Below are positions 1,600 to 33,827 of a stretch of DNA of 40,704 nucleotides, piece after piece (position 1 is the first letter of the stretch; the number at the start of each line of letters is the position of its first letter). The position numbers and the translations under genes are program-made. The stretch covers positions 1 through 40,704 of the forward strand of contig JAAYNS010000016.1 in NCBI GenBank assembly GCA_012520755.1. The letters run 5' to 3'. The notes beneath the pieces were generated by a model. It had not been told where the DNA came from. It saw only the letters and a list, made by a program, of their open reading frames with translations, and ran no database searches. This DNA is from Tissierellia bacterium. Its GTDB lineage: Bacteria; Bacillota; Clostridia; Tissierellales; Tissierellaceae.

Positions 1600-2784
1600 A
1601 TGAGAATTAAAGAATTAGCTGAAAAGTATGATGACTATATTATCGAGCAAAGACGTTGGTTCCATGCTAATCCTGAGCTTAGTTTACAGGAAGAAAATAC
1701 AACAAAACATATAGTCGAAGAATTAGAGAATATGGGCATTGAAGTTATTTCTTTTCCTGATTATTATGGATGTGTAGGCATTATAAAAGGTGGAAAACCT
1801 GGCAAAACAGTGATGCTTCGTGCTGATATTGATGGTCTACCTGTAGAAGAGCATACTGGCCTTCCATACGCTTCAACTAATGGAAACATGCATGCTTGTG
1901 GTCATGATACTCATATGGCAACACAATTAGGAGCAGCTAAGATATTAGTTGATTTAAAGGACGAGCTAGAAGGTACTGTAAAACTTCTGTTCCAATCAGG
2001 TGAAGAAGTCGGTCATGGTTCCAAGTATTATGTTGAAAAAGGATATTTAGACGATGTTGATGCTGTTTATGGAACCCATATATGGTCTGGCTTAGAGGCT
2101 GGTAAGTTTAGTCTTGAGCCTGGTGAAAGAATGGCTTCTTGTGATACTTTTAAGATAATTGTAGAGGGAATATCATCCCATGGTTCAGCTCCACACTTAG
2201 GAAATGATGCATTATTTGCTGCAGCTTCCATTGTTATGAACATCCAGTCCTTTGTAAGTAGAAGATTAGACCCACTTGAGTCTGCTGTTGTTTCTATTGG
2301 CACTATAAATGGTGGTCAAAGGTTTAACATTATTGCTAACCATATTGAAATGGAAGGTACGACTAGAGCATTCAATAAGAATGTAAGGGATGTAATCGAA
2401 GATGAACTTAGAAAGATAGTTGAAAATACAGCAATAGCTTTAGGTGTAACTGCTAAGCTTGAGTACAATTATTTGACAGATCCTGTTGCAAATAATGATG
2501 AGACTTTAAATAGTATTGTACAAAATGCCGCTGTTAAGCTTTATGGGGAAGATGTCCTTCAACCAATGACAAAGGTTATGGGGGCAGAGGATTTCTCACA
2601 TCTTATGAGTATGAAAAATATACCTGGTTTCTTTGGATTCACTGGATGTTATAATGAAGAAATTGGTGCTATTCACAATAATCATAGTGATATGTTCTTA
2701 GTGGATGAAAGCGCATTGCATATGACTTCAGCCTTGGCAGCACAATTTGCATATGATTATTTAAAAGAAACAGCTGAGAAATAA
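1600..2784 (+). CDS. M20 family metallo-amidohydrolase (N-acyl-amino acid hydrolase type)
   Basis: This 394-residue protein has the length and motifs of the M20D amidohydrolases (hippurate hydrolase, IAA-amino acid hydrolase, AbgB-like). Visible landmarks are RADIDGLPVEE (about residues 74-84), the metal-binding HACGHDTH at 98-105, the GEEVGHG segment with catalytic and metal Glu at about 135-136, a dimerisation domain in the middle third, and MGAEDFSHL near the C-terminus. It hydrolyses an N-acyl or peptide-like amide bond in the cytoplasm, releasing an amino acid. The start is set by AAAGGAGGGG seven to ten bases upstream. It stands as a single gene between two terminator-like hairpins. The exact substrate cannot be read from sequence; N-acetyl- or N-acyl-amino acids are the usual guess. 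Confidence 0.9.
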   Translation: MRIKELAEKYDDYIIEQRRWFHANPELSLQEENTTKHIVEELENMGIEVISFPDYYGCVGIIKGGKPGKTVMLRADIDGLPVEEHTGLPYASTNGNMHACGHDTHMATQLGAAKILVDLKDELEGTVKLLFQSGEEVGHGSKYYVEKGYLDDVDAVYGTHIWSGLEAGKFSLEPGERMASCDTFKIIVEGISSHGSAPHLGNDALFAAASIVMNIQSFVSRRLDPLESAVVSIGTINGGQRFNIIANHIEMEGTTRAFNKNVRDVIEDELRKIVENTAIALGVTAKLEYNYLTDPVANNDETLNSIVQNAAVKLYGEDVLQPMTKVMGAEDFSHLMSMKNIPGFFGFTGCYNEEIGAIHNNHSDMFLVDESALHMTSALAAQFAYDYLKETAEK

Positions 2785-2802
2785 TTCTCAGCTGTTATTT
2801 TT
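2771..2802 (+). terminator. Bidirectional intrinsic terminator
   Basis: CAGCTGAGAA and TTCTCAGCTG form a perfect 10-bp stem around the loop ATAA, which contains the M20 stop codon. T-rich tracts flank both sides, so it can also end transcripts of the converging OadG-like gene on the minus strand. Confidence 0.75.
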
Positions 2803-2813
2803 ATTTATTAATA

Positions 2814-2945
2814 TTACTCATTGCCACGTCCACTTCCTAGATTTTGGGCAATACTTACCACTAAATAAATAGCAATTATTACTACGAAAATTGCTACCAT
2901 GCCTTTCCACATAAGCTCTAAGGAAGCATAAAAATTATTCATCAT
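2814..2945 (-). CDS. 43-aa OadG-like small membrane subunit of a sodium-pumping decarboxylase
   Basis: A short frame that starts ATGATG six bases after AGGAGG and encodes 43 residues. It has a short N-terminal part (MMNNFYASLELMWKG), one transmembrane helix (about residues 16-33, MVAIFVVIIAIYLVVS) and a short polar tail. This is the layout of the gamma/OadG-type subunits of Na+-translocating decarboxylases, in a minimal form that is often found beside oadB in Clostridia. It lies 70 bases downstream of the beta-subunit gene on the same strand, which supports the assignment. It lacks the long Pro/Ala-rich and metal-binding tail of full OadG. With its neighbour truncated, it may be a remnant of a pump rather than a working part. 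Confidence 0.7.
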   Translation of the reverse strand: MMNNFYASLELMWKGMVAIFVVIIAIYLVVSIAQNLGSGRGNE

Positions 2946-3015
2946 ATGATTTTCCTCCTATAACGAGGCTAACTACCACTATAAAGATGTGGTTAATATC
3001 CCCTTGTTATCATTA

Positions 3016-3903
3016 TTATAATAGTGTAGGAATTAAGCTAATTATAACTCCACCTGCCACAACTGATGCTATCTGACCTGAAACATTTGCAGCTACTGCA
3101 TGCATTAGTAAATGATTTTGTGAATCTGCTTCTAATCCCATTTTTTGTACTACTCTTGCTGACATAGGAAAAGCTGATATTCCTGCCGCTCCTACCATTG
3201 GATTAATTTTTTCTTTACTAAATATATTCAATATTTTTGCAAACAAAACTCCTGCTATTGTGTCAAATACAAATGCTAATAGACCTAAGCCCATAATTAA
3301 AAAAGTTTCAAAAGTCACAAATGTTTCCGCCTGCATACTTGCTGAAATCGTGATTCCTAAAAATAAGGTAATCAGATTTGCTAAAGCATTTTGAGCTGTA
3401 TCTGATAATGAATTAAGTACTCCACATTCTCTTATTAAATTACCAAACATCAAAAATCCTACTAATGCAATTGAAGCTGGTGCGACTAATCCTGCAATAA
3501 AGGTTACTATTATAGGAAATAGAATCTTAGTTCTTTTTGTTACACTCTTAGGATTGTATTTCATCCTAATAGCTCTTTCATTTTTTGTAGTAACTAATTT
3601 TATAGCCAAGGGTTGAATAATAGGAACAAGAGCCATATAAGAATATGCAGCTACTGCAATTGCCCCTATGTAATTGCTTCCTAGAATCTGAGATACCAGA
3701 ATAGATGTAGGTCCATCAGCTGCACCAATTATTCCTATTGAAGCTGCATCTGTTAAATTAAAACCCAATAGTGTAGCTACTGTGATTGTTGCAAATATTC
3801 CAAATTGGGCTGCTGCTCCAAATAATAGTAATTTGGGATTTGCTAAAAGAGGACCAAAATCTATCATTGCTCCAATTCCAACAAATACATCTTTCAAACA
3901 CAT
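3016..3903 (-). CDS. oadB: Sodium ion-translocating decarboxylase beta subunit (OadB/GcdB family), N-terminally truncated, probable pseudogene
   Basis: The protein matches the membrane beta subunit of Na+-pumping oxaloacetate/glutaconyl-CoA/methylmalonyl-CoA decarboxylases: GIGAMIDFGPLLANPKLLLF, GIIGAADGPTSI, AVAAYSYMALVPIIQP and the C-terminal VSGQIASVVAGG are recognisable. The family is usually about 370-400 residues; this frame has 295 and begins directly at the segment that normally follows the first ~90 residues. An in-frame TGA sits only three codons upstream of the ATG, and no ribosome-binding site precedes it. The J-domain gene ends 23 bases upstream, leaving no room for the missing first helices. 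No biotin carrier or carboxyltransferase gene is nearby. What remains of the frame is intact, so loss may be recent. The OadG-like gene follows. Confidence 0.8.
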   Translation of the reverse strand: MCLKDVFVGIGAMIDFGPLLANPKLLLFGAAAQFGIFATITVATLLGFNLTDAASIGIIGAADGPTSILVSQILGSNYIGAIAVAAYSYMALVPIIQPLAIKLVTTKNERAIRMKYNPKSVTKRTKILFPIIVTFIAGLVAPASIALVGFLMFGNLIRECGVLNSLSDTAQNALANLITLFLGITISASMQAETFVTFETFLIMGLGLLAFVFDTIAGVLFAKILNIFSKEKINPMVGAAGISAFPMSARVVQKMGLEADSQNHLLMHAVAANVSGQIASVVAGGVIISLIPTLL

Positions 3904-3926
3904 GAATTGAATTCATATATAGTATT

Positions 3927-4709
3927 CTATTTATTAATATTCTTATACCTTTCTATATTGGCATCGTTTAAAAATTCGTATGCATCATTAATCACCTGGA
4001 ATTTTGTTGTTGCATCTGGGGCCTTATTTATATCTGGATGGTATTCTTTTGCCTTTTTTCTATATGCTAATTTTATTTGGTATTTATCTGCATCTGTTCC
4101 TAGTCCTAAGATTTGACAAGATTTTTCATATTTACTTACAAAATCCGTAGTTGGGTTTACATATGTTTGTCCGCCATATCCAGTGTACTGCCCACTTCCC
4201 CAATAGCCACCATAGTATTGTTGTTGGGACTTTTGGTATTCATTCCATTGTCTGAATCGTTCTTCCCACTGTCTTTGCTCTTCTTCTCGTCTCCTCTGCT
4301 GTTCACGCCTACGTTGTTCCTCTTGCATCCTTCTATACTTTAAACCATATTCATTGAATCTTTTCTTTCTATTTCTACCTTTGATTAAATCATCTGATAA
4401 ATCAAATAAGTATTCAGTAAAAATATATTTTAAATATTTAAGCCAGGATACAAACTTTGTACCTAATATAGGAAATACAACAAAAAATAGCACTAATAAA
4501 AGTGTTGCTGGATTTAATAGAAAATAAAGTCCAAATGGACCCAAGAGAAAAATAAAAAGACATCCCCCTGCACCTATTAATGCCGCTAACCCACTTGATA
4601 GGGTTGCTACTACTGTAACGACAAAGTTTACTATATTTATTATTAAATCAAGTATGAAAGATATGCCCTCTGTTATTTTATGCAATCCTTTACCGATTAT
4701 TTTTTTCAT
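3927..4709 (-). CDS. Membrane-anchored J-domain protein with C-terminal J domain
   Basis: A 260-residue protein with an inverted layout compared with DnaJ. Residues ~20-90 are strongly hydrophobic and glycine-rich, giving two or three membrane segments. Residues ~115-165 are an Arg/Glu/Gln-rich coiled coil with runs such as RRREQQRRREEEQRQ. A Tyr/Gly/Gln-rich linker follows (~165-185). The C-terminal ~60 residues are a J domain with helix II basic residues and the essential HPD at 224-226 (KEYHPDIN). No Gly/Phe-rich region or zinc-finger follows. By family knowledge the HPD loop stimulates Hsp70 (DnaK) ATPase, so the protein probably recruits DnaK to the inner face of the membrane. Start: GAGGTGATGG ten bases before the ATG. 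Clients are unknown. Its 3' end abuts the truncated oadB. Confidence 0.8.
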   Translation of the reverse strand: MKKIIGKGLHKITEGISFILDLIINIVNFVVTVVATLSSGLAALIGAGGCLFIFLLGPFGLYFLLNPATLLLVLFFVVFPILGTKFVSWLKYLKYIFTEYLFDLSDDLIKGRNRKKRFNEYGLKYRRMQEEQRRREQQRRREEEQRQWEERFRQWNEYQKSQQQYYGGYWGSGQYTGYGGQTYVNPTTDFVSKYEKSCQILGLGTDADKYQIKLAYRKKAKEYHPDINKAPDATTKFQVINDAYEFLNDANIERYKNINK

Positions 4710-4743
4710 TAATATCCATCACCTCGTATTCTCATCCCTAAGA

Positions 4744-4752
4744 ATTATATCA
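4744..4752 (-). promoter_or_regulatory. Candidate extended -10 promoter for the J-domain gene
   Basis: TGATATAAT (TGn plus TATAAT) on the minus strand, 35 bases before the start codon. No good -35 element is visible, which is tolerated by extended -10 promoters. Confidence 0.4.
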
Positions 4753-4809
4753 AGTCTTTATGAAGAGAATATTACATTTATCAATCTTTTTCAAATATTA
4801 TTGCCAAAT

Positions 4810-4858
4810 TAAAAAAATAAACCAAGTTTTTCACTTTATTTATGAATACTTGGTTTAT
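4810..4858 (-). terminator. Intrinsic terminator of the trpXYZ-type operon
   Basis: ATAAACCAAGT and ACTTGGTTTAT form a perfect 11-bp stem with a 20-base loop. On the minus strand it is followed by a run of T, four bases after the stop codon of the ATPase gene. Confidence 0.75.
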
Positions 4859-4862
4859 TATA

Positions 4863-5609
4863 TTAGTATATAGACAAAATTTCTCCTGCTGTAATCTTAT
4901 TCTTTTTTTCATCTTTTTCATCTAATATGATTTCTCCTTGATTCATCATGAGTAATCTATTACCGTATTCTAGGGCATAATTTATATTATGGGTTACCAT
5001 AATTGTGGTTAATTTTTTTTCTTTTACAATCTTTTCTGTTAATTTCATAATAATATCTGCCACTTTTGGATCTAAAGCCGCTGTATGTTCATCTAAAATA
5101 AGGTATTCTATAGGAGTCATTGTTGCCATTAATAGAGCCATAGCTTGCCTCTGACCTCCAGATAATTCTCCTACTCTTACATTTAGTTTATTTTCTAAGT
5201 CTAAATCAAGATCTCTTAATCGATCTTTATAAAATTCTATACGATTTTTTCTGATTCCCCTTGTTAAGTTATATGACTTCCCCTTATTATCTGCCAAGGA
5301 CATATTCTCCAATACAGTCATATCAGTACATGTACCAACAGATGGTTCCTGATATACCCTTCCTATCTTGCTATATCTTTGAAAATCTTTTTTATTTGTT
5401 ATATCTTCATTATCTAAGATAACTTGACCACTGTCTATTTCTAAACTGCCACAGATTATATTTATTAATGAGGTTTTTCCACTCCCATTGTTACCAATTA
5501 CGGAGATAAAGTCATTTTTCTCTACTTTTAAATTGAAATCATGAAATAATTCTGATTCATGCTTGGTTCCCTTATTAAATGTTTTATATATTTTCCTTAA
5601 TTCAAGCAT
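4863..5609 (-). CDS. trpZ: ABC transporter ATP-binding protein (TrpZ type)
   Basis: A 248-residue nucleotide-binding subunit. Walker A GNNGSGKT is at 39-46, the ABC signature LSGGQ at 149-153, Walker B LILDEHTAALD around 170-180 and the switch His in MVTHN near 206. It energises import by the permease encoded just upstream, whose 3' end it overlaps by 8 bp, indicating translational coupling. It belongs with the permease and substrate-binding lipoprotein of the group predicted to import tryptophan. It is the last gene of a three-gene operon that starts with a T-box leader and ends in a strong terminator. ATPase assignment is certain; the symbol rests on operon context and the UGG specifier, not on direct proof. 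Confidence 0.88.
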   Translation of the reverse strand: MLELRKIYKTFNKGTKHESELFHDFNLKVEKNDFISVIGNNGSGKTSLINIICGSLEIDSGQVILDNEDITNKKDFQRYSKIGRVYQEPSVGTCTDMTVLENMSLADNKGKSYNLTRGIRKNRIEFYKDRLRDLDLDLENKLNVRVGELSGGQRQAMALLMATMTPIEYLILDEHTAALDPKVADIIMKLTEKIVKEKKLTTIMVTHNINYALEYGNRLLMMNQGEIILDEKDEKKNKITAGEILSIY

Positions 5610-6519
5610 CTACTTTCACCTTTTTCTTTTTACCTTCACTAAAAATTAAGATTAGCAAAAACAAAATTGCTGTTATTAGTTTCATATCGCTTGCCCTTGC
5701 AAACCTAATATCCATTGCAGCAGACATTGCAGCCTTATAAATTATAGAGCCAAATATGACTGATGTTGTAGCTTTTACAAATTTAATCTTTTTAAATACA
5801 TTTATACCTATGATTACTGACGCTAAGCCCAATACCATTGCACCAGTTCCCATGGTAATTTCAAAAAAACCTTGCTGTTGCATCAAGATGCTGCCAGATA
5901 ATGCAACTATTCCATTGCCTATAACTAAGCCTAATATTTTAATATTTCCATTGTCTTTTGCTAAGGTAGTTACTAATATTTCATTATTACCAACTGCTCT
6001 TAACAAGAATCCAGACTTTGTTTTTAAGTATAAGTCCAATATTATCTTTGTAGCTATTGTAATAATTGTTGCAATTATTATTACCTTGTACCTTAGTAAA
6101 GACTCAGGGAATATCATATCCATTGTACTATTTGAAAATATAGTATCTAAATTAAATATAGGTACATTTGCACTTCCTGCTATTCTAAGATTTATGGAAT
6201 ATAGACCAGTCATGGTTATTATTCCTGATATTAAGTCCCTAATATTAAATTTTACATGAATGATTCCTGTAACTAGTCCTGCAATAGCCCCAGCCATAAG
6301 TGCATATAAACAAATTATATAAGGATTGTGACCCAAGCTAATAGTAGCTACAAGGTCTCCTGTATTAGTCATTAAGTATGCAGTGACGGCAGCTCCCAAA
6401 GGGAAGCTTCCGTCTACTGTTAAATCCGGGAAGTTTAATATCCTATATGTTATATATAAGCCTAAGGCCAAAATGGCATAAATCATTCCTTGTTCTAGTA
6501 TTCCTATAAAAATATCCAT
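5602..6519 (-). CDS. trpY: ABC transporter permease (TrpY type)
   Basis: A 305-residue, strongly hydrophobic protein of the BPD_transp_2 (branched-chain amino-acid/ribose permease-like) group, with about eight to nine transmembrane segments. The N-terminus (GMIYAILALGLYITYRILNF) and the motif PDLTVDGSFPLGAAV are typical of permeases paired with ABC_sub_bind lipoproteins. The loop near residues 210-250 (QQGFFEITMGTGAMVLGLASVIIG) carries the conserved Gly-rich segment facing the ATPase. The start follows AAGGAGAAGATA. It sits 13 bases after the substrate-binding protein gene and overlaps the ATPase gene. Role: inner-membrane pore of the predicted tryptophan importer. The gene is intact. Confidence 0.87.
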   Translation of the reverse strand: MDIFIGILEQGMIYAILALGLYITYRILNFPDLTVDGSFPLGAAVTAYLMTNTGDLVATISLGHNPYIICLYALMAGAIAGLVTGIIHVKFNIRDLISGIITMTGLYSINLRIAGSANVPIFNLDTIFSNSTMDMIFPESLLRYKVIIIATIITIATKIILDLYLKTKSGFLLRAVGNNEILVTTLAKDNGNIKILGLVIGNGIVALSGSILMQQQGFFEITMGTGAMVLGLASVIIGINVFKKIKFVKATTSVIFGSIIYKAAMSAAMDIRFARASDMKLITAILFLLILIFSEGKKKKVKVDA

Positions 6520-6532
6520 TATCTTCTCCTTA

Positions 6533-7510
6533 TTACTCCGCTACATCCATCGCCCTATCCATGTATTCTTGTGCTAATGAAAGATTAAACTCCTCCATTA
6601 CATGGCTATTTATATAAAGACTGCTTTTTTCTATTATTTCATAAGCTATTTCATCAGCTGTTTTTTCCCCACTTAATATTTGAGCTGCCATTCTTCCAGT
6701 TTGTTTTCCAAGCTCTACATATTCTATTCCTTCTGAAGCTATACAACCTAGTTTAACCTGCTCTATTTCACTTCCAAATACCGGAACACCCTTGGCATTT
6801 GCTTTTTCTAAAATTACTGGTAATGAGCCAACTACTGTATTGTCTGTTAAGTTTGTCATGGCATCAACTTGTGGCAATATCCTATCTACTGCTAGTGGTA
6901 CATCTGCTGTAGCCGAAACTCCCATATCTACTATTTCAAAGCCATAGTTGCCTGCAAGTGCCTTATATTCTTCTATTGTGGAAAGAGAGTTTACTTCACT
7001 TGTAGTATAAAGTATCCCAATATTTTTCGCTTGTGGAAGCATGGCTCTAATTAATTTCAATTGAGCTTCAACTGGTAGTTTGTCACTAGTTCCTGTTACA
7101 TTTCCTTCTGTAAGCATTGCTGCTACAGGATCTGTAACTGCTGTGAATACTACTGGTATATCTTTATCCTTTGCTGCATTAAATGAGCTTTGAGCTACTG
7201 GAGTTGCAATTGCTCCTATTAGATCAACTTTCTTAGATACAAAGCTTTGCGCTATTTGATTAGATATTCCATTATCAAACTGAGCATTTTCATATATTAT
7301 TGTCAAATTTTCCCCTTCAATAAATCCTTCTTCTGCAAGTCCAGCTATGAATCCTTCCCTACAGTTATCAAGGGATGCATGCTCACCAAATTGTGTAATT
7401 CCTATTGTATATTGGTCTACTTCTATGTCTGTTGCCTGAGTATCACTACTACATCCTGTAAACAAGCCTATTGCTAATATTAAAACAAGTCCTATTATTA
7501 TCTTTTTCAT
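6533..7510 (-). CDS. trpX: Tryptophan ABC transporter substrate-binding lipoprotein (TrpX type)
   Basis: A 325-residue periplasmic-binding-type protein (ABC_sub_bind family). The first 20 residues are a lipoprotein signal with lipobox LFTGC, so it is anchored to the outer face of the membrane by its Cys-20 lipid. The body shows the two Rossmann-like lobes of the family, with YTIGITQFGEHASLDNCREGF at the start, VDLIGAIATPVAQ, and GILYTTSEVNS at the hinge. It captures the substrate for the permease and ATPase that follow. A T-box leader with a UGG (Trp) specifier lies directly upstream, which is the main evidence for tryptophan. AGGAGGAAATAAAA precedes the ATG. Confidence 0.88.
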   Translation of the reverse strand: MKKIIIGLVLILAIGLFTGCSSDTQATDIEVDQYTIGITQFGEHASLDNCREGFIAGLAEEGFIEGENLTIIYENAQFDNGISNQIAQSFVSKKVDLIGAIATPVAQSSFNAAKDKDIPVVFTAVTDPVAAMLTEGNVTGTSDKLPVEAQLKLIRAMLPQAKNIGILYTTSEVNSLSTIEEYKALAGNYGFEIVDMGVSATADVPLAVDRILPQVDAMTNLTDNTVVGSLPVILEKANAKGVPVFGSEIEQVKLGCIASEGIEYVELGKQTGRMAAQILSGEKTADEIAYEIIEKSSLYINSHVMEEFNLSLAQEYMDRAMDVAE

Positions 7511-7616: not shown

Positions 7617-7659
7617 AATAAAAAAGTCCCAAGTTTTTGCATTCACAAAAACTTGGGAC
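7617..7659 (-). terminator. T-box regulated terminator before trpX
   Basis: GTCCCAAGTTTTT and its complement form a perfect 13-bp stem with an 8-base loop, followed on the minus strand by TTTTTT. The 5' side of the stem lies in the T-box antiterminator segment, so the two folds are mutually exclusive. Confidence 0.9.
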
Positions 7660-7900
7660 GAAATATCTTTTCGCGGTACCACCCAATTTGGCTTCAAAAG
7701 AAACCCACTTAAGTCACATACTATCATATGTGCCGCTTCTTAACAGGTGCGGTACCCGTCAGCTCCTACTTTATACATTTCAGGCTGCCCTCAAAAGTCC
7801 ATTCAACAAATATCTATATATCGCAATTTCACCACCAGCGACTCTCTTTTATATAGGAGAATTTGTCTACTACTCTTTTTCAAAGGTTTAATTCTTATAT
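7622..7900 (-). promoter_or_regulatory. T-box leader (tRNA-Trp sensing)
   Basis: On the minus strand the leader contains the invariant T-box core GGGTGGTACCGCG (7672-7684), which pairs with the NCCA end of uncharged tRNA, followed by the terminator. Upstream is a long Stem I with AGAGAG and GGTGGTGAAA landmarks. In the specifier loop the usual GAA-NNN-x-CUUUGAG context reads GAA-UGG-A-CUUUUGAG, giving UGG at 7801-7799, a tryptophan codon. Uncharged tRNA-Trp should stabilise the antiterminator and switch on trpXYZ. T-box identity is certain; the specifier reading rests on alignment of the local context by eye. Confidence 0.92.
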
Positions 7901-10481: not shown

Positions 10482-10533
10482 GAATTTACGTATAGTAAAA
10501 ATTAAGACAATCCTCTCTCCTTTCTTACTCTTA

Positions 10534-10711
10534 GTGAGATAGCACAACATTACAGTACGAGTAAATACTGTAATGACAGTTCCATATTTATTAGATATGG
10601 TCCCAGCAACAGATTTTGGTATCTGAAGCTTCGGCGATTGCTCCTTTCACTATACTTCTTTGGATTCCGTCCTCCATATAGTTACTCTTAGAAACCGCAC
10701 CTCTACCTCAC
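10534..10711 (-). promoter_or_regulatory. Lysine riboswitch (L box) aptamer
   Basis: The minus strand carries the L-box signature in order: GTGAGGTAGAGGTGC (P1 5' side and start of the core), AAGAGTAA, GTGAAAGGAGCAATCGCCGAAG (the most conserved core segment), GCTGGGACC, two peripheral hairpins with complementary loops, and GTGCTATCTCAC, which closes P1. P1 pairs 10703-10711 with 10534-10542. Lysine binding should favour the downstream terminator and shut off the ABC importer. The class is clear from the core segment. Confidence 0.93.
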
Positions 10712-10763
10712 CCAAAGGATGAGGATTTTTATTAACTTGTAATTAGTTCACTTACTTTTTAGT

Positions 10764-19862: not shown

Positions 19863-19904
19863 ACCGTCATCACCGAGGCTTTCAGTAGCTGAAAGCAATC
19901 TCTC

Positions 19905-20057
19905 TATCATAGGCAGGTCTCCTGACTTAGACTTAAAACATCACTTTACTCCTTCCCAGCATAGGCCAGTGGTATAGTAAGGACTCGTCTTTACAGTGTC
20001 GGGTACGTACTGGATTTGCACCAGTTTCCCTATTCTCCCAAAAGGGCACCTAAGATA
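19905..20057 (-). promoter_or_regulatory. Cobalamin (B12) riboswitch aptamer
   Basis: The minus strand follows the B12 aptamer consensus: AGGTGCCC, GGGAAACTGGTGCAAATCC, CCCGACACTGTAA, CCACTGG, AAGTCAGGAGACCTGCC (the B12-box region). P1 pairs TATCTTAGG with CCTATGATA with one mismatch. Binding of adenosylcobalamin should promote the downstream terminator and reduce cobT expression. Confidence 0.93.
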
Positions 20058-20080
20058 TATTTAATTATTTACTAGTTATT

Positions 20081-24964: not shown

Positions 24965-25005
24965 GTATAAAAAACATAAAAACTTAAGTTAACTTAAGTT
25001 TTTAT
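24965..25005 (-). terminator. Intrinsic terminator of the EAL-HDOD gene
   Basis: ATAAAAACTTAAGTT followed directly by its exact reverse complement, a 30-base perfect palindrome; on the minus strand it runs into GTTTTTTAT. It lies 7 bases after the stop codon. Confidence 0.75.
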
Positions 25006-25011
25006 CGGTCA

Positions 25012-26217
25012 TTAATAATCTGAATTTGTCACCCATGTTAAGGCTTCAATATATCTATTCATAAACTTTTCTTGACTGATGTCGGTATCTGTAAGCTTGC
25101 TTTCCATCTCCATCCATCTTAGGTTTTCATAGTTTAGAATCATATCTAGCATTTCTCTAATTTCATTACATTTCCCAAGCAATGCATCTTTTACATCATC
25201 ACTTAAAGGTAATTCATCTAATATTTCCTTCATATCTCGATTTGTAAGAACATCAATAGAGGAAAACATTCCTGTTAAGAAATAATCTAATTTTTTATTC
25301 CTCATACCAATATCGATTGCCAATAACTCCATGAGCTTGGCTCTTATCAAACAAGTTTTGATTAGTTCTTTGTTTTCTACAGTCTGTACATCTCTTAATA
25401 ACAATACATAGATCCATTTACTGATTTCAATTATGCCCAATTGAACTAATGCGTGTTTTATAGAAATTATCTTATTTCTTGTACCAAGAAGGGCAGAATT
25501 GGCCAATTTCAATAATTTATAAACCAGACCTAAATCCGATTGAATAACCTCCGCCATCTTTTGAAAGTCTGGTTCTTTTTGATTTAGCATCTCTAATATC
25601 AGAATTAGGTTTACATTCAGATTATCTACTTCTTTACTTTTTATTATCACTGGCTTACTAAAGAAATATCCTTGGAAATAGTCATATCCCATATCTAAAG
25701 CTAATTTATACTCTTCTCTTGTTTCTACTTTTTCAGCCAAGAACTTTATCCTATTTTTATACTTACTTATTAGTTTTCTTTGTATTTCATGCTCTACAAA
25801 AGGAAACTCAACTTTTACAATATCTGCGATTTCTAATAAGGGAAGACTAGATTCATCAAATATGTAATCGTCAAGGGCTATGGTATATCCTTTATCACTT
25901 ATTTTTTTACATGCTTCAATAAGCTCATCAGTAATTTCAACTCTCTCTAAGATTTCCACAACAGTTAATTCTTTAGGCAGTATTAAGGGAATTTGCTCAA
26001 TAAGCATTTTCTCAGAAAAGTTAATAAAACCCTTGGTTCCATCGGTAAGTTCAGAAAAATGCATGTTTAGGTATGAATTACTAATTAATTCTGCTGTAGC
26101 TTGATTATCATCAGATCCCTCATAAAGATTGTTCATACCTCTACGATATAATAACTCATATCCCAATACATTCATTTTTCTATCAAAGATTGGTTGTCGG
26201 GCTACATAGATATCCAT
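25012..26217 (-). CDS. EAL-HDOD domain signalling protein (YuxH-like)
   Basis: A 401-residue protein. Residues 1-200 are an EAL domain of the divergent kind found with HDOD: MDIYVARQPIFDRKMNVLGYELLYR, FINFSEKML, VVEILERVEI, TIALDDYIFD, ADIVKVEF, LAEKVETREE and FQGYFFSKP. Several metal/substrate residues (Glu, Asn, Glu, Asp-Asp, Lys, Glu, Gln) are in place, but the DFGTG loop 6 is replaced by DYIFDE, so cyclic-di-GMP hydrolysis is doubtful. Residues ~205-400 are an HDOD domain (MAEVIQSDLGLVYKLLKLANSALLG, ISIKHALVQLGIIEISKWI), which lacks HD-phosphodiesterase residues and is thought to be a protein-interaction module. The frame opens at a GTG nine bases upstream that overlaps the ribosome-binding site; the ATG matching the family start is used. 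Confidence 0.87.
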   Translation of the reverse strand: MDIYVARQPIFDRKMNVLGYELLYRRGMNNLYEGSDDNQATAELISNSYLNMHFSELTDGTKGFINFSEKMLIEQIPLILPKELTVVEILERVEITDELIEACKKISDKGYTIALDDYIFDESSLPLLEIADIVKVEFPFVEHEIQRKLISKYKNRIKFLAEKVETREEYKLALDMGYDYFQGYFFSKPVIIKSKEVDNLNVNLILILEMLNQKEPDFQKMAEVIQSDLGLVYKLLKLANSALLGTRNKIISIKHALVQLGIIEISKWIYVLLLRDVQTVENKELIKTCLIRAKLMELLAIDIGMRNKKLDYFLTGMFSSIDVLTNRDMKEILDELPLSDDVKDALLGKCNEIREMLDMILNYENLRWMEMESKLTDTDISQEKFMNRYIEALTWVTNSDY

Positions 26218-26333
26218 AGCACTCACCTTTCCTTATGTATTCCATCTCTAAGGCTTACTCCTTTTATCTATAAATAATCTTTACCCAATATTTTACACTT
26301 TTATCCTGTGCTTTTATTAAATAATTAATTATT

Positions 26334-26792
26334 TTACCCTTCTTCGGAAAAATCATCTTCTTCAAAATTCGTACTGACTTCAATTCGAACTAAAGCACGT
26401 CGTACCCCTACGCCTAAGCTTTGATAGCGAAGCTCTTCTGTTCTTTCTAATATACCTGCTTCTGCTTCTTCACGATCTCTTATAGCGCGTTCTAGGTCTA
26501 TTTCTTCAGGTTTTTGTGCTATGGTGCTATATATGTTTACACTTGTATTGTCCACCTCAACTACACCGCCAAATACGGCTAATTTTTTCTCCATACCATC
26601 GTTAATAATTCGAAGGATACCGTCACCTAGTACTGTGGAGACTGGTTCATGACCAGGCAATACACCAAAATCACCGTCTACACAACGCATAATAACCATA
26701 TCAGCTTCTTCAGATAATTTTAATCCTCGAGGTGTAGTTATATTTAAGATTATTTTTTTTGCCTCTAATAAACTGGTCTCTTGTTCCATCAT
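26334..26792 (-). CDS. atpC: ATP synthase F1 subunit epsilon
   Basis: About 152 residues. An N-terminal beta-sandwich (IILNITTPRGLKLSEEADMVIMRCVDGDFGVLPGHEP) and a C-terminal two-helix domain (DLERAIRDREEAEAGILERTEELRYQSLGVGVRRALVRIEV). Epsilon links the gamma stalk to the c-ring and inhibits ATP hydrolysis. It is longer than the usual 130-140 residues owing to a short acidic tail (STNFEEDDFSEEG). An upstream in-frame GTG lies within the ribosome-binding site AAGGTGG; the tandem ATGATG after it is the start, one base beyond the atpD stop codon. Last gene of the operon; only a weak AT-rich inverted repeat follows. Confidence 0.93.
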   Translation of the reverse strand: MMEQETSLLEAKKIILNITTPRGLKLSEEADMVIMRCVDGDFGVLPGHEPVSTVLGDGILRIINDGMEKKLAVFGGVVEVDNTSVNIYSTIAQKPEEIDLERAIRDREEAEAGILERTEELRYQSLGVGVRRALVRIEVSTNFEEDDFSEEG

Positions 26793-26793
26793 A

Positions 26794-29053
<2,260 letters not shown>

Positions 29054-29065
29054 ATTAGTACCTCC

Positions 29066-31100
<2,035 letters not shown>

Positions 31101-31113
<13 letters not shown>

Positions 31114-31655
31114 TGTGAATCCTCCATCTTAGCTAGAGTTTCCTCAAAAATCTTATCTTGAGTGTCATTGTCCATATTTTCAGTAATATATTTTTTGGCC
31201 ATAAGAGAAGCTAGTTCGATTATATATTGACGCGTTTCATCTTGTAAACGCTTTTTCTCAGCTACTATACTATCTAATGAGCGTTTTTTCAACTCAGATG
31301 CCTCTTCTCTGGCTTCATCAATAATTAACTTGCTCTCAGCAACAGCCTTGATGCGAGCATCCTCAAGGATTTCCATTCGCTCTTTATCTATTTCTTTTAT
31401 TTTTTTGTCATATTCTGCAATAAGCTCATTTGCTTTAGCCATAGTTGCATCTGAATCATCAATCTTGTTTTGAATCTTATTAGTTCGTTCTTCCAAAAAT
31501 TCTTTAACTGGTTTATAAAGAATAAAGGTTAGGGCAATAGCTAAAATAATTGCGTTTAACAATTGGATGCCACTACTAATAAAGGTTTGGTTATCCAATG
31601 CAAAAACACGACCTTCAGGCAGAGCTTGAGCTAAAAACACAATCTCACTACGCAA
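31101..31655 (-). CDS. atpF: ATP synthase F0 subunit b
   Basis: 184 residues. One N-terminal transmembrane helix (about 30-48, LLNAIILAIALTFILYKPV) and a long charged coiled coil forming the peripheral stalk (EERTNKIQNKIDDSDATMAKANELIAEYDKKIK and onward). The N-terminus before the helix is longer than usual, with ~27 residues. The start is a TTG nine bases after AGGAGG; no in-frame ATG precedes the membrane helix. Overlaps atpH. Confidence 0.92.
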
Positions 31656-31705
31656 TTCAAATGACCTCCTTTCCTCTGTCTTGTTTCAGATTTATAAAAC
31701 ACATT

Positions 31706-31978
31706 TTATCCAAGAAGACTCATTAAAATATCTACCAATGGATTTGCAAAAAGCATGATAATAGAAACTAAAAGTCCGTAAATACCAGACGTTTCACACA
31801 TTGCTAAACCAACAAACATAGCACTTCTAATATCATCAGCAGCTTCTGGCTGTCTTGCTATTGACTCCATCGCCTGACAAGCAACTCTTGACTGCCCAAA
31901 TGTAGTTGTCACCCCGTTAAGAAGTGCAATTGCTGATGCAATATGAATTATACCAATAACTAATGCTACTGTTTCCAT
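31706..31978 (-). CDS. atpE: ATP synthase F0 subunit c (probable Na+-binding type)
   Basis: 90 residues, two membrane helices joined by the polar loop ARQPEA that contacts gamma and epsilon. The ion-carrying Glu is E62 in MCETSGIY. Around it are Q29 in helix 1, T63 and Y67, which match the Na+-ligand set of Ilyobacter tartaricus c (Q32, E65, S66, Y70) with the Ser-to-Thr exchange seen in other Na+ enzymes. Helix 1 reads GVTTTFGQS where most c subunits have a GxGxGxGxG repeat. An in-frame TTG five codons upstream lies in the ribosome-binding site GGAGG; the ATG of METVALV is the start. Confidence 0.94.
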   Translation of the reverse strand: METVALVIGIIHIASAIALLNGVTTTFGQSRVACQAMESIARQPEAADDIRSAMFVGLAMCETSGIYGLLVSIIMLFANPLVDILMSLLG

Positions 31979-32050
31979 AATAATTTCCTCCAATCAAATT
32001 TTTATTGTATTTTATTTTTTATATTATTTGACAATTTATTCACTAATAAC

Positions 32051-32728
32051 TTATGAGGCAGCACTTTCAACATACATAATACTTATGATAACAAATATAT
32101 AGGTCTGTATAGTACCAAATATAACATCAAAGAAGCCATGTAATAATGCAGGTATGCCAAACTGGACAAATAAGGGCGTTAGTGAATAATATAGTGTCAG
32201 AATGATTGTTCCTGAAAGCATATTACCAAAAAGCCTGAAACTTAACGAAACAGGCTTTGCTAATTCTCCAATCAGATTTAAAGGGAAAAATACAAAATGT
32301 GGATTAAAAAAACTTTTCAGATATTGGCCTTTTTGATGTTTAAAACCCATAATGATCATGAGTGAGAAACTAGCAAAGGCCAGTGCAAACGTAGTTGCCC
32401 AATCTGCTGTTGGAGCCCTAAGCCCAAAAATACTGAACATACTAGATGAGAAAATGAATACAAACACCATAAAGTACCATGGCGCTATATAGGATAAATT
32501 TTTACCCAAGGCATTTGTAGCAAAATTGTCAAAAACCTCCACAATAATTTCTACTACATTTTGAAAACCTGTGGGTACAAGTTTGAAACTTTTTAGTTTA
32601 ATACGTGCGATAATTGCAAGAGCTATAATAATCGACATAATAATCCATGTGTTAAATATTGTTTCTGTAATCCAAATTTCAGTCCCTGCCACATCCAAAA
32701 CCCAAAGATTATCTATGTTTAAATTCAA
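32051..32728 (-). CDS. atpB: ATP synthase F0 subunit a
   Basis: 225 residues with five to six membrane helices. The essential Arg of helix 4 lies in SLSFRLFGNMLSG; FNPHFVFFPLNLIGELAKPVSL precedes it, and the C-terminal helix IFGTIQTYIFVIISIMYV follows. It forms the two ion half-channels beside the c-ring. The frame starts with TTG after AGGTGGTGA; the residues that follow (MNLNIDNLWV) fit the family N-terminus, so a TTG start is accepted. Downstream gap to atpE holds only a short AT-rich stretch. Confidence 0.94.
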   Translation of the reverse strand: MNLNIDNLWVLDVAGTEIWITETIFNTWIIMSIIIALAIIARIKLKSFKLVPTGFQNVVEIIVEVFDNFATNALGKNLSYIAPWYFMVFVFIFSSSMFSIFGLRAPTADWATTFALAFASFSLMIIMGFKHQKGQYLKSFFNPHFVFFPLNLIGELAKPVSLSFRLFGNMLSGTIILTLYYSLTPLFVQFGIPALLHGFFDVIFGTIQTYIFVIISIMYVESAAS

Positions 32729-32749
32729 TGATTATCACCACCTATGTTT

Positions 32750-33163
32750 TTATTCATTCTTCCAAGTCCTAATAGTATACAATGACAACTGGAAAGCAAA
32801 TACGCCAGCTACCACACCCAACAGACTAATCTGTGGCACAACAGCACCTATAAAGAAGGCTATACCAGAAATTAAAAGTCTTAGTATATGTTGCAAACCA
32901 GCATAGTTACCAACCTTTTTTTTCTCCATTGACATTATATTGTCCACGGTACGCTCTAACATAAAAACTTTAAGGATACTAGTAGTTGAGCTTATGAGGA
33001 CGCCTAAAAAAAACGGAAGAAAAGCCACTGAACGATAATAGATTACAGAAATTATAATGCATATCAATGATATAATTAGAATTGATGTGACCATCCTCTT
33101 TGCTAAACCAGATATTTTCATGATACCCCTCTTCTTTATAATCTGCCCCTTGTCCTCTGTCAT
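32750..33163 (-). CDS. atpI: ATP synthase subunit I
   Basis: Up to 137 residues with four membrane helices (SILIISLICIIISVIYYRS; FLPFFLGVLISSTTSILKVFML; LLISGIAFFIGAVVP; LGVVAGVFAFQLSLYTI). AtpI is an F0 assembly factor that helps c-ring formation and may affect Mg2+ uptake. The first ATG overlaps the atpZ stop by 4 bases. A second ATG 42 bases on, after GAGGGG, would give 123 residues starting MKISGLAKR, and cannot be excluded. Confidence 0.88.
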   Translation of the reverse strand: MTEDKGQIIKKRGIMKISGLAKRMVTSILIISLICIIISVIYYRSVAFLPFFLGVLISSTTSILKVFMLERTVDNIMSMEKKKVGNYAGLQHILRLLISGIAFFIGAVVPQISLLGVVAGVFAFQLSLYTIRTWKNE

Positions 33164-33405
33164 TTTTCATCCTTTTGGTCCTTAGATATGTTGAACAAGA
33201 CCCTAATAGCTGCACCTACTCCTAGTAGAGAAAAAATCAATAATAACCAGGGAGATGTGCCTAAAAAACCATCTAGGTACTTGCCTAACATGACGCCAAC
33301 AAATACTGATGATGCCATTGTTACTCCAATCTGTGAGAAGTTGGCTAAGCCACGCAGAGTTCCTCTATTCTTAGTTCCTTTATCTTTATTTGGCTCCTTA
33401 GTCAA
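33160..33405 (-). CDS. atpZ: AtpZ/AtpI-type small F0 accessory protein
   Basis: 81 residues, two membrane helices (QIGVTMASSVFVGVMLGKYLD and WLLLIFSLLGVGAAIRVLFNI), a lysine-rich N-terminus and tail. The Gly-rich GKYLDGFLGTSPW turn is typical of the AtpZ family that precedes atpI in Firmicutes; AtpZ and AtpI are thought to act together in F0 assembly or Mg2+/Ca2+ handling. AGGAGG is six bases before a TTG, the only plausible start. First gene of the operon, coupled to atpI by a 4-base overlap. Confidence 0.88.
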   Translation of the reverse strand: MTKEPNKDKGTKNRGTLRGLANFSQIGVTMASSVFVGVMLGKYLDGFLGTSPWLLLIFSLLGVGAAIRVLFNISKDQKDEK

Positions 33406-33451
33406 AATAGCCTCCTAATAACACCAATAATAGTGTCCCTAACATAATTTT

Positions 33452-33480
33452 GGTGCTCAAAAGTTAAATAAATGAGCACC
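33452..33480 (-). other. 5' hairpin in the atp operon leader
   Basis: GGTGCTCA and TGAGCACC form a perfect 8-bp stem with a 13-base loop, about 16 bases from the predicted transcript start. There is no adjacent T run, so it looks like a message-stabilising or regulatory stem. Confidence 0.55.
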
Positions 33481-33502
33481 CTAGCATAATACATTGTCAT
33501 AA

Positions 33503-33532
33503 ATTTTATCACAAAATTTGAGAAATTGTCAA
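33503..33532 (-). promoter_or_regulatory. Promoter of the ATP synthase operon
   Basis: On the minus strand TTGACA, 18 bases, TAAAAT. Start of transcription expected near 33496, giving a ~90-base leader before atpZ. Confidence 0.7.
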
Positions 33533-33827
33533 GTTTTAACCCTTTACAAGTTCTATCTATAAAGCTCATCATTTAGAGCTTTAGGGATCATTATTTATCA
33601 AATAAAATAATATGTTAAAAATTTGTCTACCTAGAATCAACATATTGACTTCATAGGTATTCTTCTTTTCGACATAAATAAAACCATAAATATCTTTAGC
33701 TTTTATAGAAAAAGACCTTTATGGTTTATATTCTGTATATTAATTTAATTTTATTCTATTTAAAAGCTATTATTTACTTTGTATAGTAAACTTTACTTCT
33801 TTAATTAAGTAGAGATAAGTATTTGGA
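33533..33827. other. Non-coding interval between the bactofilin gene and the atp promoter
   Basis: About 295 AT-rich bases. It holds a terminator-like hairpin (33681-33727), a 7-bp inverted repeat AAAGCTC/GAGCTTT (33561-33582) and a loose TACCTA/TAGGTA pair. Only tiny frames of about 12 codons exist; none has a convincing ribosome-binding site. No known RNA class was recognised. Confidence 0.5.
33672..33727 (-). terminator. Candidate terminator of the deacetylase-bactofilin operon
   Basis: AAACCATAAA and TTTATGGTTT form a perfect 10-bp stem with a long 27-base loop, followed on the minus strand by TATTTATG. The long loop and weak T run lower confidence. Confidence 0.4.

What the first reader, a model, noticed from the sequence alone, without database searches (positions are those of the whole stretch)
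31706..31978. ATP synthase c subunit carries a sodium-binding residue set
Q29, E62, T63 and Y67 line up with the Na+ ligands Q32, E65, S66 and Y70 of Ilyobacter tartaricus c when the shared ESIARQPEA loop and GIY are aligned. Seen: the residues. Known: this set distinguishes Na+- from H+-coupled rings. Inferred: the operon encodes a Na+-translocating ATP synthase, so the cell would keep a sodium gradient. The oadB remnant and the CPA1 antiporter are in keeping with sodium use.
Basis: partly seen in the sequence, partly recalled or inferred. Interest (0 to 1): 0.6.

Follow-up and report, generated by a model that had tools for sequence, protein, structure and literature searches.

The report
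Sodium ATP synthase with unusual rotor
This anaerobic bacterium's ATP-making rotary motor carries the amino acids that bind sodium instead of protons, which is common among its relatives, but it belongs to a separate family whose rotor's inner wall is rewritten in a way that could change how many sodium ions are needed per ATP.

Summary
Confirmed: window 31706-31978, minus strand, is an intact atpE in a complete atpZIBEFHAGDC operon. Q29, E62, T63, S64 and Y67 fall exactly on the I. tartaricus Na+ set Q32, E65, S66, T67, Y70, by sequence and by structural alignment. A Na+-coupled F-type ATP synthase is the best reading (about 0.8). On its own this is ordinary: all 41 ordinary clostridial c subunits compared here carry the same set.

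It belongs to a separate, strongly supported ATP synthase clade (beta tree 100/99; 27 distinct c sequences, scattered over many Clostridia families). In it the inner-helix GxGxGxG motif, which sets ring size, is replaced (GxTxTxG here, mostly GxLxTxG) and the helix-kinking Pro28 is Thr, while the Na+ ligands stay nearly invariant. A sister species has other genes at the operon's site, and two congeners carry the ordinary enzyme, so it was probably acquired horizontally. Widened-rotor reading: about 0.35-0.4, untested.

Better support: a second, V-type Na+ ATPase and Rnf genes in the genome.

The parts
31706..31978 (-). atpE, c subunit (rotor), 90 aa; carries the Na+ site and the altered helix-1 motif
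31892..31894 (-). codon of Gln29 (= I. tartaricus Gln32, side-chain Na+ ligand)
   Evidence: read; alignment; 26/27 in clade
31787..31795 (-). codons of Glu62-Thr63-Ser64 (= Glu65, Ser66, Thr67)
   Evidence: Glu62 and Thr63 invariant in 27 clade members
31778..31780 (-). codon of Tyr67 (= Tyr70, second-shell hydrogen bond to Glu)
31895..31915 (-). helix-1 motif G22-V-T-T-T-F-G28 (GxTxTxG) where ordinary rings have GxGxGxG with Pro at the fourth place
32051..32728 (-). atpB, a subunit (225 aa) with the essential Arg in SFRLFGN
   Evidence: PF00119; alignment
31101..31655 (-). atpF, b subunit
   Evidence: PF00430
30574..31113 (-). atpH, delta subunit
   Evidence: operon position; tblastn to relatives
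29066..30577 (-). atpA, alpha subunit
   Evidence: TIGR00962, 794 bits
28184..29053 (-). atpG, gamma subunit
   Evidence: operon position
26794..28203 (-). atpD, beta subunit; used for the tree
   Evidence: TIGR01039, 795 bits; tree
26334..26801 (-). atpC, epsilon subunit
   Evidence: operon position
32750..33163 (-). atpI
   Evidence: PF03899
33160..33405 (-). atpZ-like first gene of the operon
   Evidence: PF09527
33503..33532 (-). promoter-like site TTGACA-N18-TAAAAT upstream of the operon (consensus match only)
24980..33720 (.). approximate block (EAL-domain gene plus atp operon) that sister species G026 lacks; G026 has a different 2.7 kb there

Best explanation
The operon encodes a Na+-coupled F1Fo-ATP synthase. 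In each c-ring site Na+ would be held by Glu62 and Gln29 of one subunit and by Thr63 and the backbone of Met60 of its neighbour, with a water held by Ser64 and Tyr67 locking the Glu (shown: the residues and their register; inferred from I. tartaricus, F. nucleatum and A. woodii structures: the coordination). A Na+ gradient, most likely made by the Rnf complex, would drive synthesis; the second, V-type Na+ ATPase of the cell could run as an ATP-driven Na+ pump (inferred). The enzyme belongs to a distinct clostridial clade whose inner rotor helix has lost the GxGxGxG motif. I expect its rotor helices to be spaced more widely than in the c11 Na+ rings, so that more Na+ is used per ATP and a weaker gradient suffices (inferred; confidence in this sub-claim about 0.4).
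For: Ligand register by sequence and structure. Closest solved chains by sequence are the Na+ rings of A. woodii, I. tartaricus and F. nucleatum. Purifying pattern over 27 clade members: Glu62, Thr63 and Tyr67 invariant, Gln29 26/27, position 64 Ser/Asn in 25/27, while helix 1 as a whole is twice as variable as helix 2 (mean entropy 1.14 against 0.57 bits). The same set in 41/41 ordinary clostridial c subunits. Intact operon with a-subunit Arg. Cell context: V-type K subunit aligned end to end with E. hirae Na+-ATPase subunit K (E = 3.2e-45) keeping LPGTQ, Gln and Glu; RnfC and RnfD at the end of a contig, RnfA/E in all three congeners; no PF00361 antiporter-like subunit. Motif bulk: side volume at the four motif positions 352 A^3 in the window against 240 in ordinary rings, 354 in the c13 alkaliphile ring and 297 in the c17 N-type ring; papers tie such replacements to wider or larger rings (PMC2914638, PMC4453477, PMC5376962). 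Precedent for Gln binding Na+ without Pro and with a bulky residue before it: E. hirae NtpK reads G-L-F-S-G-I-A-Q110, the window G-V-T-T-T-F-G-Q29.
Against: No activity data. Pro28, said to kink helix 1 so that Gln32 reaches the Glu (PMC2914638), is Thr25, so Q29 may sit differently; the monomer model draws helix 1 as one unbroken helix (2-42). A ring with a similar partial set is H+-specific (B. pseudomallei N-type, PMC5376962). RnfA/E were not found in this MAG (contig ends after RnfD), and Rnf can be H+-coupled in some species (C. ljungdahlii, reference listed in PMC7414866). Ring size cannot be read from the motif alone: by my reading the c14/c15 photosynthetic rings keep most of the glycines.
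Confidence: 0.78

Rival explanations
1. The ring is H+-coupled (or H3O+/mixed): the polar residues are an inheritance from a Na+ ancestor, and loss of Pro28 and the glycines has moved Gln29 so that Na+ selectivity is lost.
For: Pro28 to Thr and loss of the glycine motif; H+-specific N-type ring with Glu30/Thr62/Tyr66 (PMC5376962).
Against: Gln29, Thr63 and Tyr67 would be free to drift in an H+ ring, but are invariant or nearly so over 27 sequences while neighbouring helix-1 positions vary; one member swaps Gln for Asp, the two-carboxylate type of change, not for a hydrophobic residue (L169); a Na+-type V-ATPase in the same cell.
Confidence: 0.15
2. The helix-1 rewriting does not change ring size: the ring stays near c10-c11 and the bulky residues are absorbed by local repacking or a wider central pore.
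For: Motif and stoichiometry are only loosely tied; no ring of this clade has been solved (one search lists only ordinary rings as nearest).
Against: In OF4 two Ala-to-Gly changes at this motif are enough to shift c13 to c12 (PMC4453477); here the replaced positions carry Thr, Leu, Phe or Ile.
Confidence: 0.45
3. The enzyme works in cells as an ATP-driven Na+ pump rather than a synthase.
For: A cell with a fermentative outfit and two Na+-type rotary enzymes would not need both as synthases.
Against: Standard atpIBEFHAGDC synthase gene order with delta and full-length epsilon; the V-type enzyme is the more natural pump; Rnf can supply a gradient.
Confidence: 0.2

Closest known systems
Ilyobacter tartaricus Na+ F1Fo-ATP synthase c11 ring (1yce, 2wgm)
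   Same: All Na+ ligand positions in ungapped register (offset 3); ARQPEA loop; hairpin superposes, Z 10.2, rmsd 2.5 over 86 residues.
   Different: About 40% identity; Thr for Ser66, Ser for Thr67, Met for Val63; GxGxGxG and Pro28 replaced by GxTxTxG and Thr.
Acetobacterium woodii Na+ ATP synthase c2/c3 ring (4bem)
   Same: Best sequence and fold match; Thr at the Ser66 place; Rnf-driven Na+ economy in an anaerobic clostridium.
   Different: Window has a single c gene, no two-hairpin c1; helix-1 motif differs.
Fusobacterium nucleatum two-carboxylate Na+ ring (3zk1)
   Same: Na+ site layout.
   Different: Window has Gln29, not Glu32; one clade member (L169) has Asp there.
N-type ATPase (Burkholderia pseudomallei c17, H+)
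   Same: Altered glycine motif in helix 1; carboxylate/Thr/Tyr near the site.
   Different: Different operon order and family; window is not N-type (alt_F1F0 models below cut-off); window keeps the hydroxyl at the Thr67 place.
Enterococcus hirae V-type Na+-ATPase K ring (2bl2)
   Same: Gln-Glu-Thr-Tyr site; bulky residue and Ser, not Gly-Pro, before the ligand Gln.
   Different: Two hairpins per subunit and V-type stator; the window protein is F-type.
Bacillus pseudofirmus OF4 c13 ring (AxAxAxA)
   Same: Replaced glycine motif with a similar side-chain bulk.
   Different: OF4 is an H+ ring without the Na+ ligands.

Membership tests
F-type ATP synthase c subunit | Two-helix hairpin with R-Q-P loop and conserved acidic residue in helix 2 | tested here: met
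   PF00137 over cut-off; TIGR01260 55 bits against 43.95; model H2-42, H44-77
F-type ATP synthase c subunit | Encoded in an operon with a, b, delta, alpha, gamma, beta, epsilon | tested here: met
Na+-coupled c ring | Complete ligand set Gln/Glu32, Glu65, Ser/Thr66, polar residue at 67, Tyr70 | tested here: met
   Q29, E62, T63, S64, Y67; definition from PMC2359735
Na+-coupled c ring | Pro28 kink and GxGxGxG inner helix as in the solved F-type Na+ rings (a structural correlate, not part of the ligand definition) | tested here: not met
   T25 and GxTxTxG
Na+-coupled c ring | Na+ stimulates ATPase and protects from DCCD | not testable with these tools
   needs protein
N-type (alternate) F-ATPase | alt_F1F0 subunit models over cut-off | tested here: not met
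   TIGR03322 57 bits against 130.85; TIGR03305 607 against 752; TIGR03324 620 against 750
Ordinary clostridial F-ATP synthase of the same family and genus | Beta subunit groups with those of the same genus | tested here: not met
   Window sits in a separate clade, 100/99 support; congeners G025 and G027 lie outside it
Larger-than-c11 ring | Subunit count | not testable with these tools
   only the motif was compared

The most novel reading that the evidence does not exclude
A so far undescribed clade of Clostridia ATP synthases builds a Na+-specific rotor ring without the GxGxGxG inner packing motif and without the Pro kink. The inner wall is of Thr/Leu/Phe, the ring has more than 11 subunits, and the Na+/ATP ratio is raised to run on small Na+ gradients. 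It spreads between families by operon transfer.
Probability: 0.35. Interest if true: 0.62.

Novelty: new variant of a known kind. Interest (0 to 1): 0.4.

Why it matters
The Na+ set alone would be one more entry in a long list. The clade is useful because it separates two things that the solved F-type Na+ rings have together: the ligand set and the glycine/Pro helix-1 architecture. A ring from it would show whether Gln can ligate Na+ in an F-type ring without the Pro kink, and whether bulky residues at the packing motif enlarge a Na+ ring, which sets how much Na+ an anaerobe pays per ATP (for example 3.7 Na+/ATP at c11, 5 at c15; arithmetic). Operon replacement would then be a route by which anaerobes change their coupling ratio.

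Tried and rejected
Misbinned contig: rejected; window 10.8-25 kb is collinear with congener G026 at about 80% DNA identity. N-type ATPase: rejected by model scores and gene order. oadB and CPA1 as support for sodium use: rejected. Na+ riboswitch near the operon as independent support: none at gathering scores in the window or in twelve related or own-genome loci. Deciding Na+ or H+ for the membrane PPase of the genome: the nearest chains of both kinds score alike; left open. Literature on this c type: three searches for c-ring motif and stoichiometry papers found no description of it; the library holds open-licence papers only.

Full report
What was checked. The interval 31706-31978 read on the minus strand is an intact 90-residue F-type c subunit. 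It is the fourth gene of a ten-gene operon, atpZ-I-B-E-F-H-A-G-D-C, 33405 down to 26334, with short gaps or overlaps and all reading frames open. The five side chains of the Na+ site sit in register with I. tartaricus: Q29, E62, T63, S64 and Y67 on Q32, E65, S66, T67 and Y70. An AlphaFold model of the monomer (pLDDT 91.5) superposes on the I. tartaricus chain at the same offset of three.

Is the Na+ inference sound? The complete set (Gln/Glu32, Glu65, Ser/Thr66, a polar residue at 67, Tyr70) is the published criterion (PMC2359735). T. maritima is a case where the motif, Na+ dependence and Na+ transport go together with Rnf (PMC7414866). A caution is the B. pseudomallei N-type ring, H+-specific although it has Glu30, Thr62 and Tyr66; it has Met where the window has Ser64 (PMC5376962). 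In the window's clade the ligands are under strong constraint. In the same genome a V-type ATPase has a K subunit that aligns end to end with the E. hirae Na+ K subunit and keeps LPGTQ, the ligand Gln and the ligand Glu. RnfC and RnfD lie at the end of contig C209. RnfA/E were not found in this 96%-complete MAG, but all three congeners have them. No PF00361 protein was found. A membrane pyrophosphatase is present, ion unknown.

What is unusual. The c subunits of most family members are the ordinary clostridial kind and only about 40% identical to the window's. In a sample of 199 genomes of the order, eight others have a c subunit 75-82% identical to the window's, and the next best is 46%; in a class-wide sample of 391 genomes ten more have 59-78%; GTDB contigs add further members, several from MAGs filed as Defluviitaleaceae and Oscillospiraceae. 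In 27 distinct sequences of this type, the four glycines of GxGxGxG (I. tartaricus 25, 27, 29, 31) read G (26/27), Leu/Phe/Ile/Thr (26/27), Thr/Val/Cys/Ala (27/27), G (27/27), and Pro28 reads Thr (26/27) or Val. In 41 ordinary clostridial sequences they read G, G, G, G and Pro (39/41). The beta-subunit tree puts the window with five genomes of genus g30 of another family of the order and further MAGs in a clade of 8 rows (100/99), inside a clade of 13 rows (100/99) that excludes its own congeners G025 and G027. The whole operon follows: alpha 79-87%, beta 85-89% and a 72-80% identity within the inner clade, against about 60-67%, 70% and 31-40% to ordinary clostridial enzymes.

How it got there. 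The window contig is collinear with congener G026 (about 80% DNA identity), so it is not a binning error. In G026 homology runs out of the antiporter gene to about window 24,980 and resumes at about 33,720 before the bactofilin gene. Between them G026 has a 2.7-kb stretch with a membrane protein and a P-II-like protein, where the window has an EAL-domain gene and the atp operon. G026 has no F-type c match. Replacement by a horizontally acquired operon explains this and the tree; loss in G026 with differential sorting is not excluded.

Meaning of the motif. Replacement of GxGxGxG by AxAxAxA goes with a wider c13 ring, two Ala-to-Gly reversions give c12, and AxGxAxAxG goes with c17 (PMC2914638, PMC4453477, PMC5376962). 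The window's motif is as bulky as AxAxAxA (352 against 354 A^3), and most clade members are bulkier (mean 403). Hence the inference that this Na+ ring is wider than c11; it is an inference from a motif and not a measurement. Pro28 is described as kinking helix 1 so that Gln32 reaches the Glu (PMC2914638); here it is Thr25. The E. hirae K subunit shows that a Gln preceded by a bulky residue and Ser (GLFSGIAQ110) can still ligate Na+, so the loss of Pro is a doubt, not a refutation.

Verdict. Residue claim confirmed. Na+ coupling likely (about 0.8), ordinary by itself. The enzyme is a member of the F-type ATP synthases with a Na+ ligand set, in a clade with a rewritten rotor helix that I did not find described. 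Ring size and ion specificity need experiment.

Noticed in passing
window 7651-7892, 10532-10713, 19895-20068 (minus): T-box leader before an ABC substrate-binding/permease set, lysine riboswitch before an amino-acid ABC transporter, and cobalamin riboswitch near cobT, all well over gathering scores.
   Followed up: no
window 3016-3903 (minus): OadB lacks its first ~65 profile positions; the DnaJ-domain gene ends 24 bases upstream, and no partner alpha subunit is adjacent.
   Followed up: partly
L004 (G000 C168) 2121-6768: Second rotary ATPase of the genome, V-type, with a complete E. hirae-like Na+ site in its K subunit.
   Followed up: yes
L031/L032 (congeners G027, G025): The ordinary-lineage c subunits of the window's own genus have also lost the glycine motif (GxFxAxG and GxLxAxG, Pro28 to Gly, Asn at the Thr67 place), apparently independently.
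   Followed up: partly
L169 (G239 C1:732618-732881): Clade member, genome held as one 3.1-Mb contig, with Asp in place of the ligand Gln: a possible Asp/Glu two-carboxylate Na+ site.
   Followed up: no
L034 (G013 C102:1-10615): N-type ATPase gene order (beta, epsilon, small genes, a, c, b, alpha, gamma) in a family member that also has an ordinary F-type operon; c has Gln32 and EST-Y.
   Followed up: no
window 32571-32906 (+): 111-codon open frame antisense to atpB/atpI; no evidence that it is a gene.
   Followed up: no
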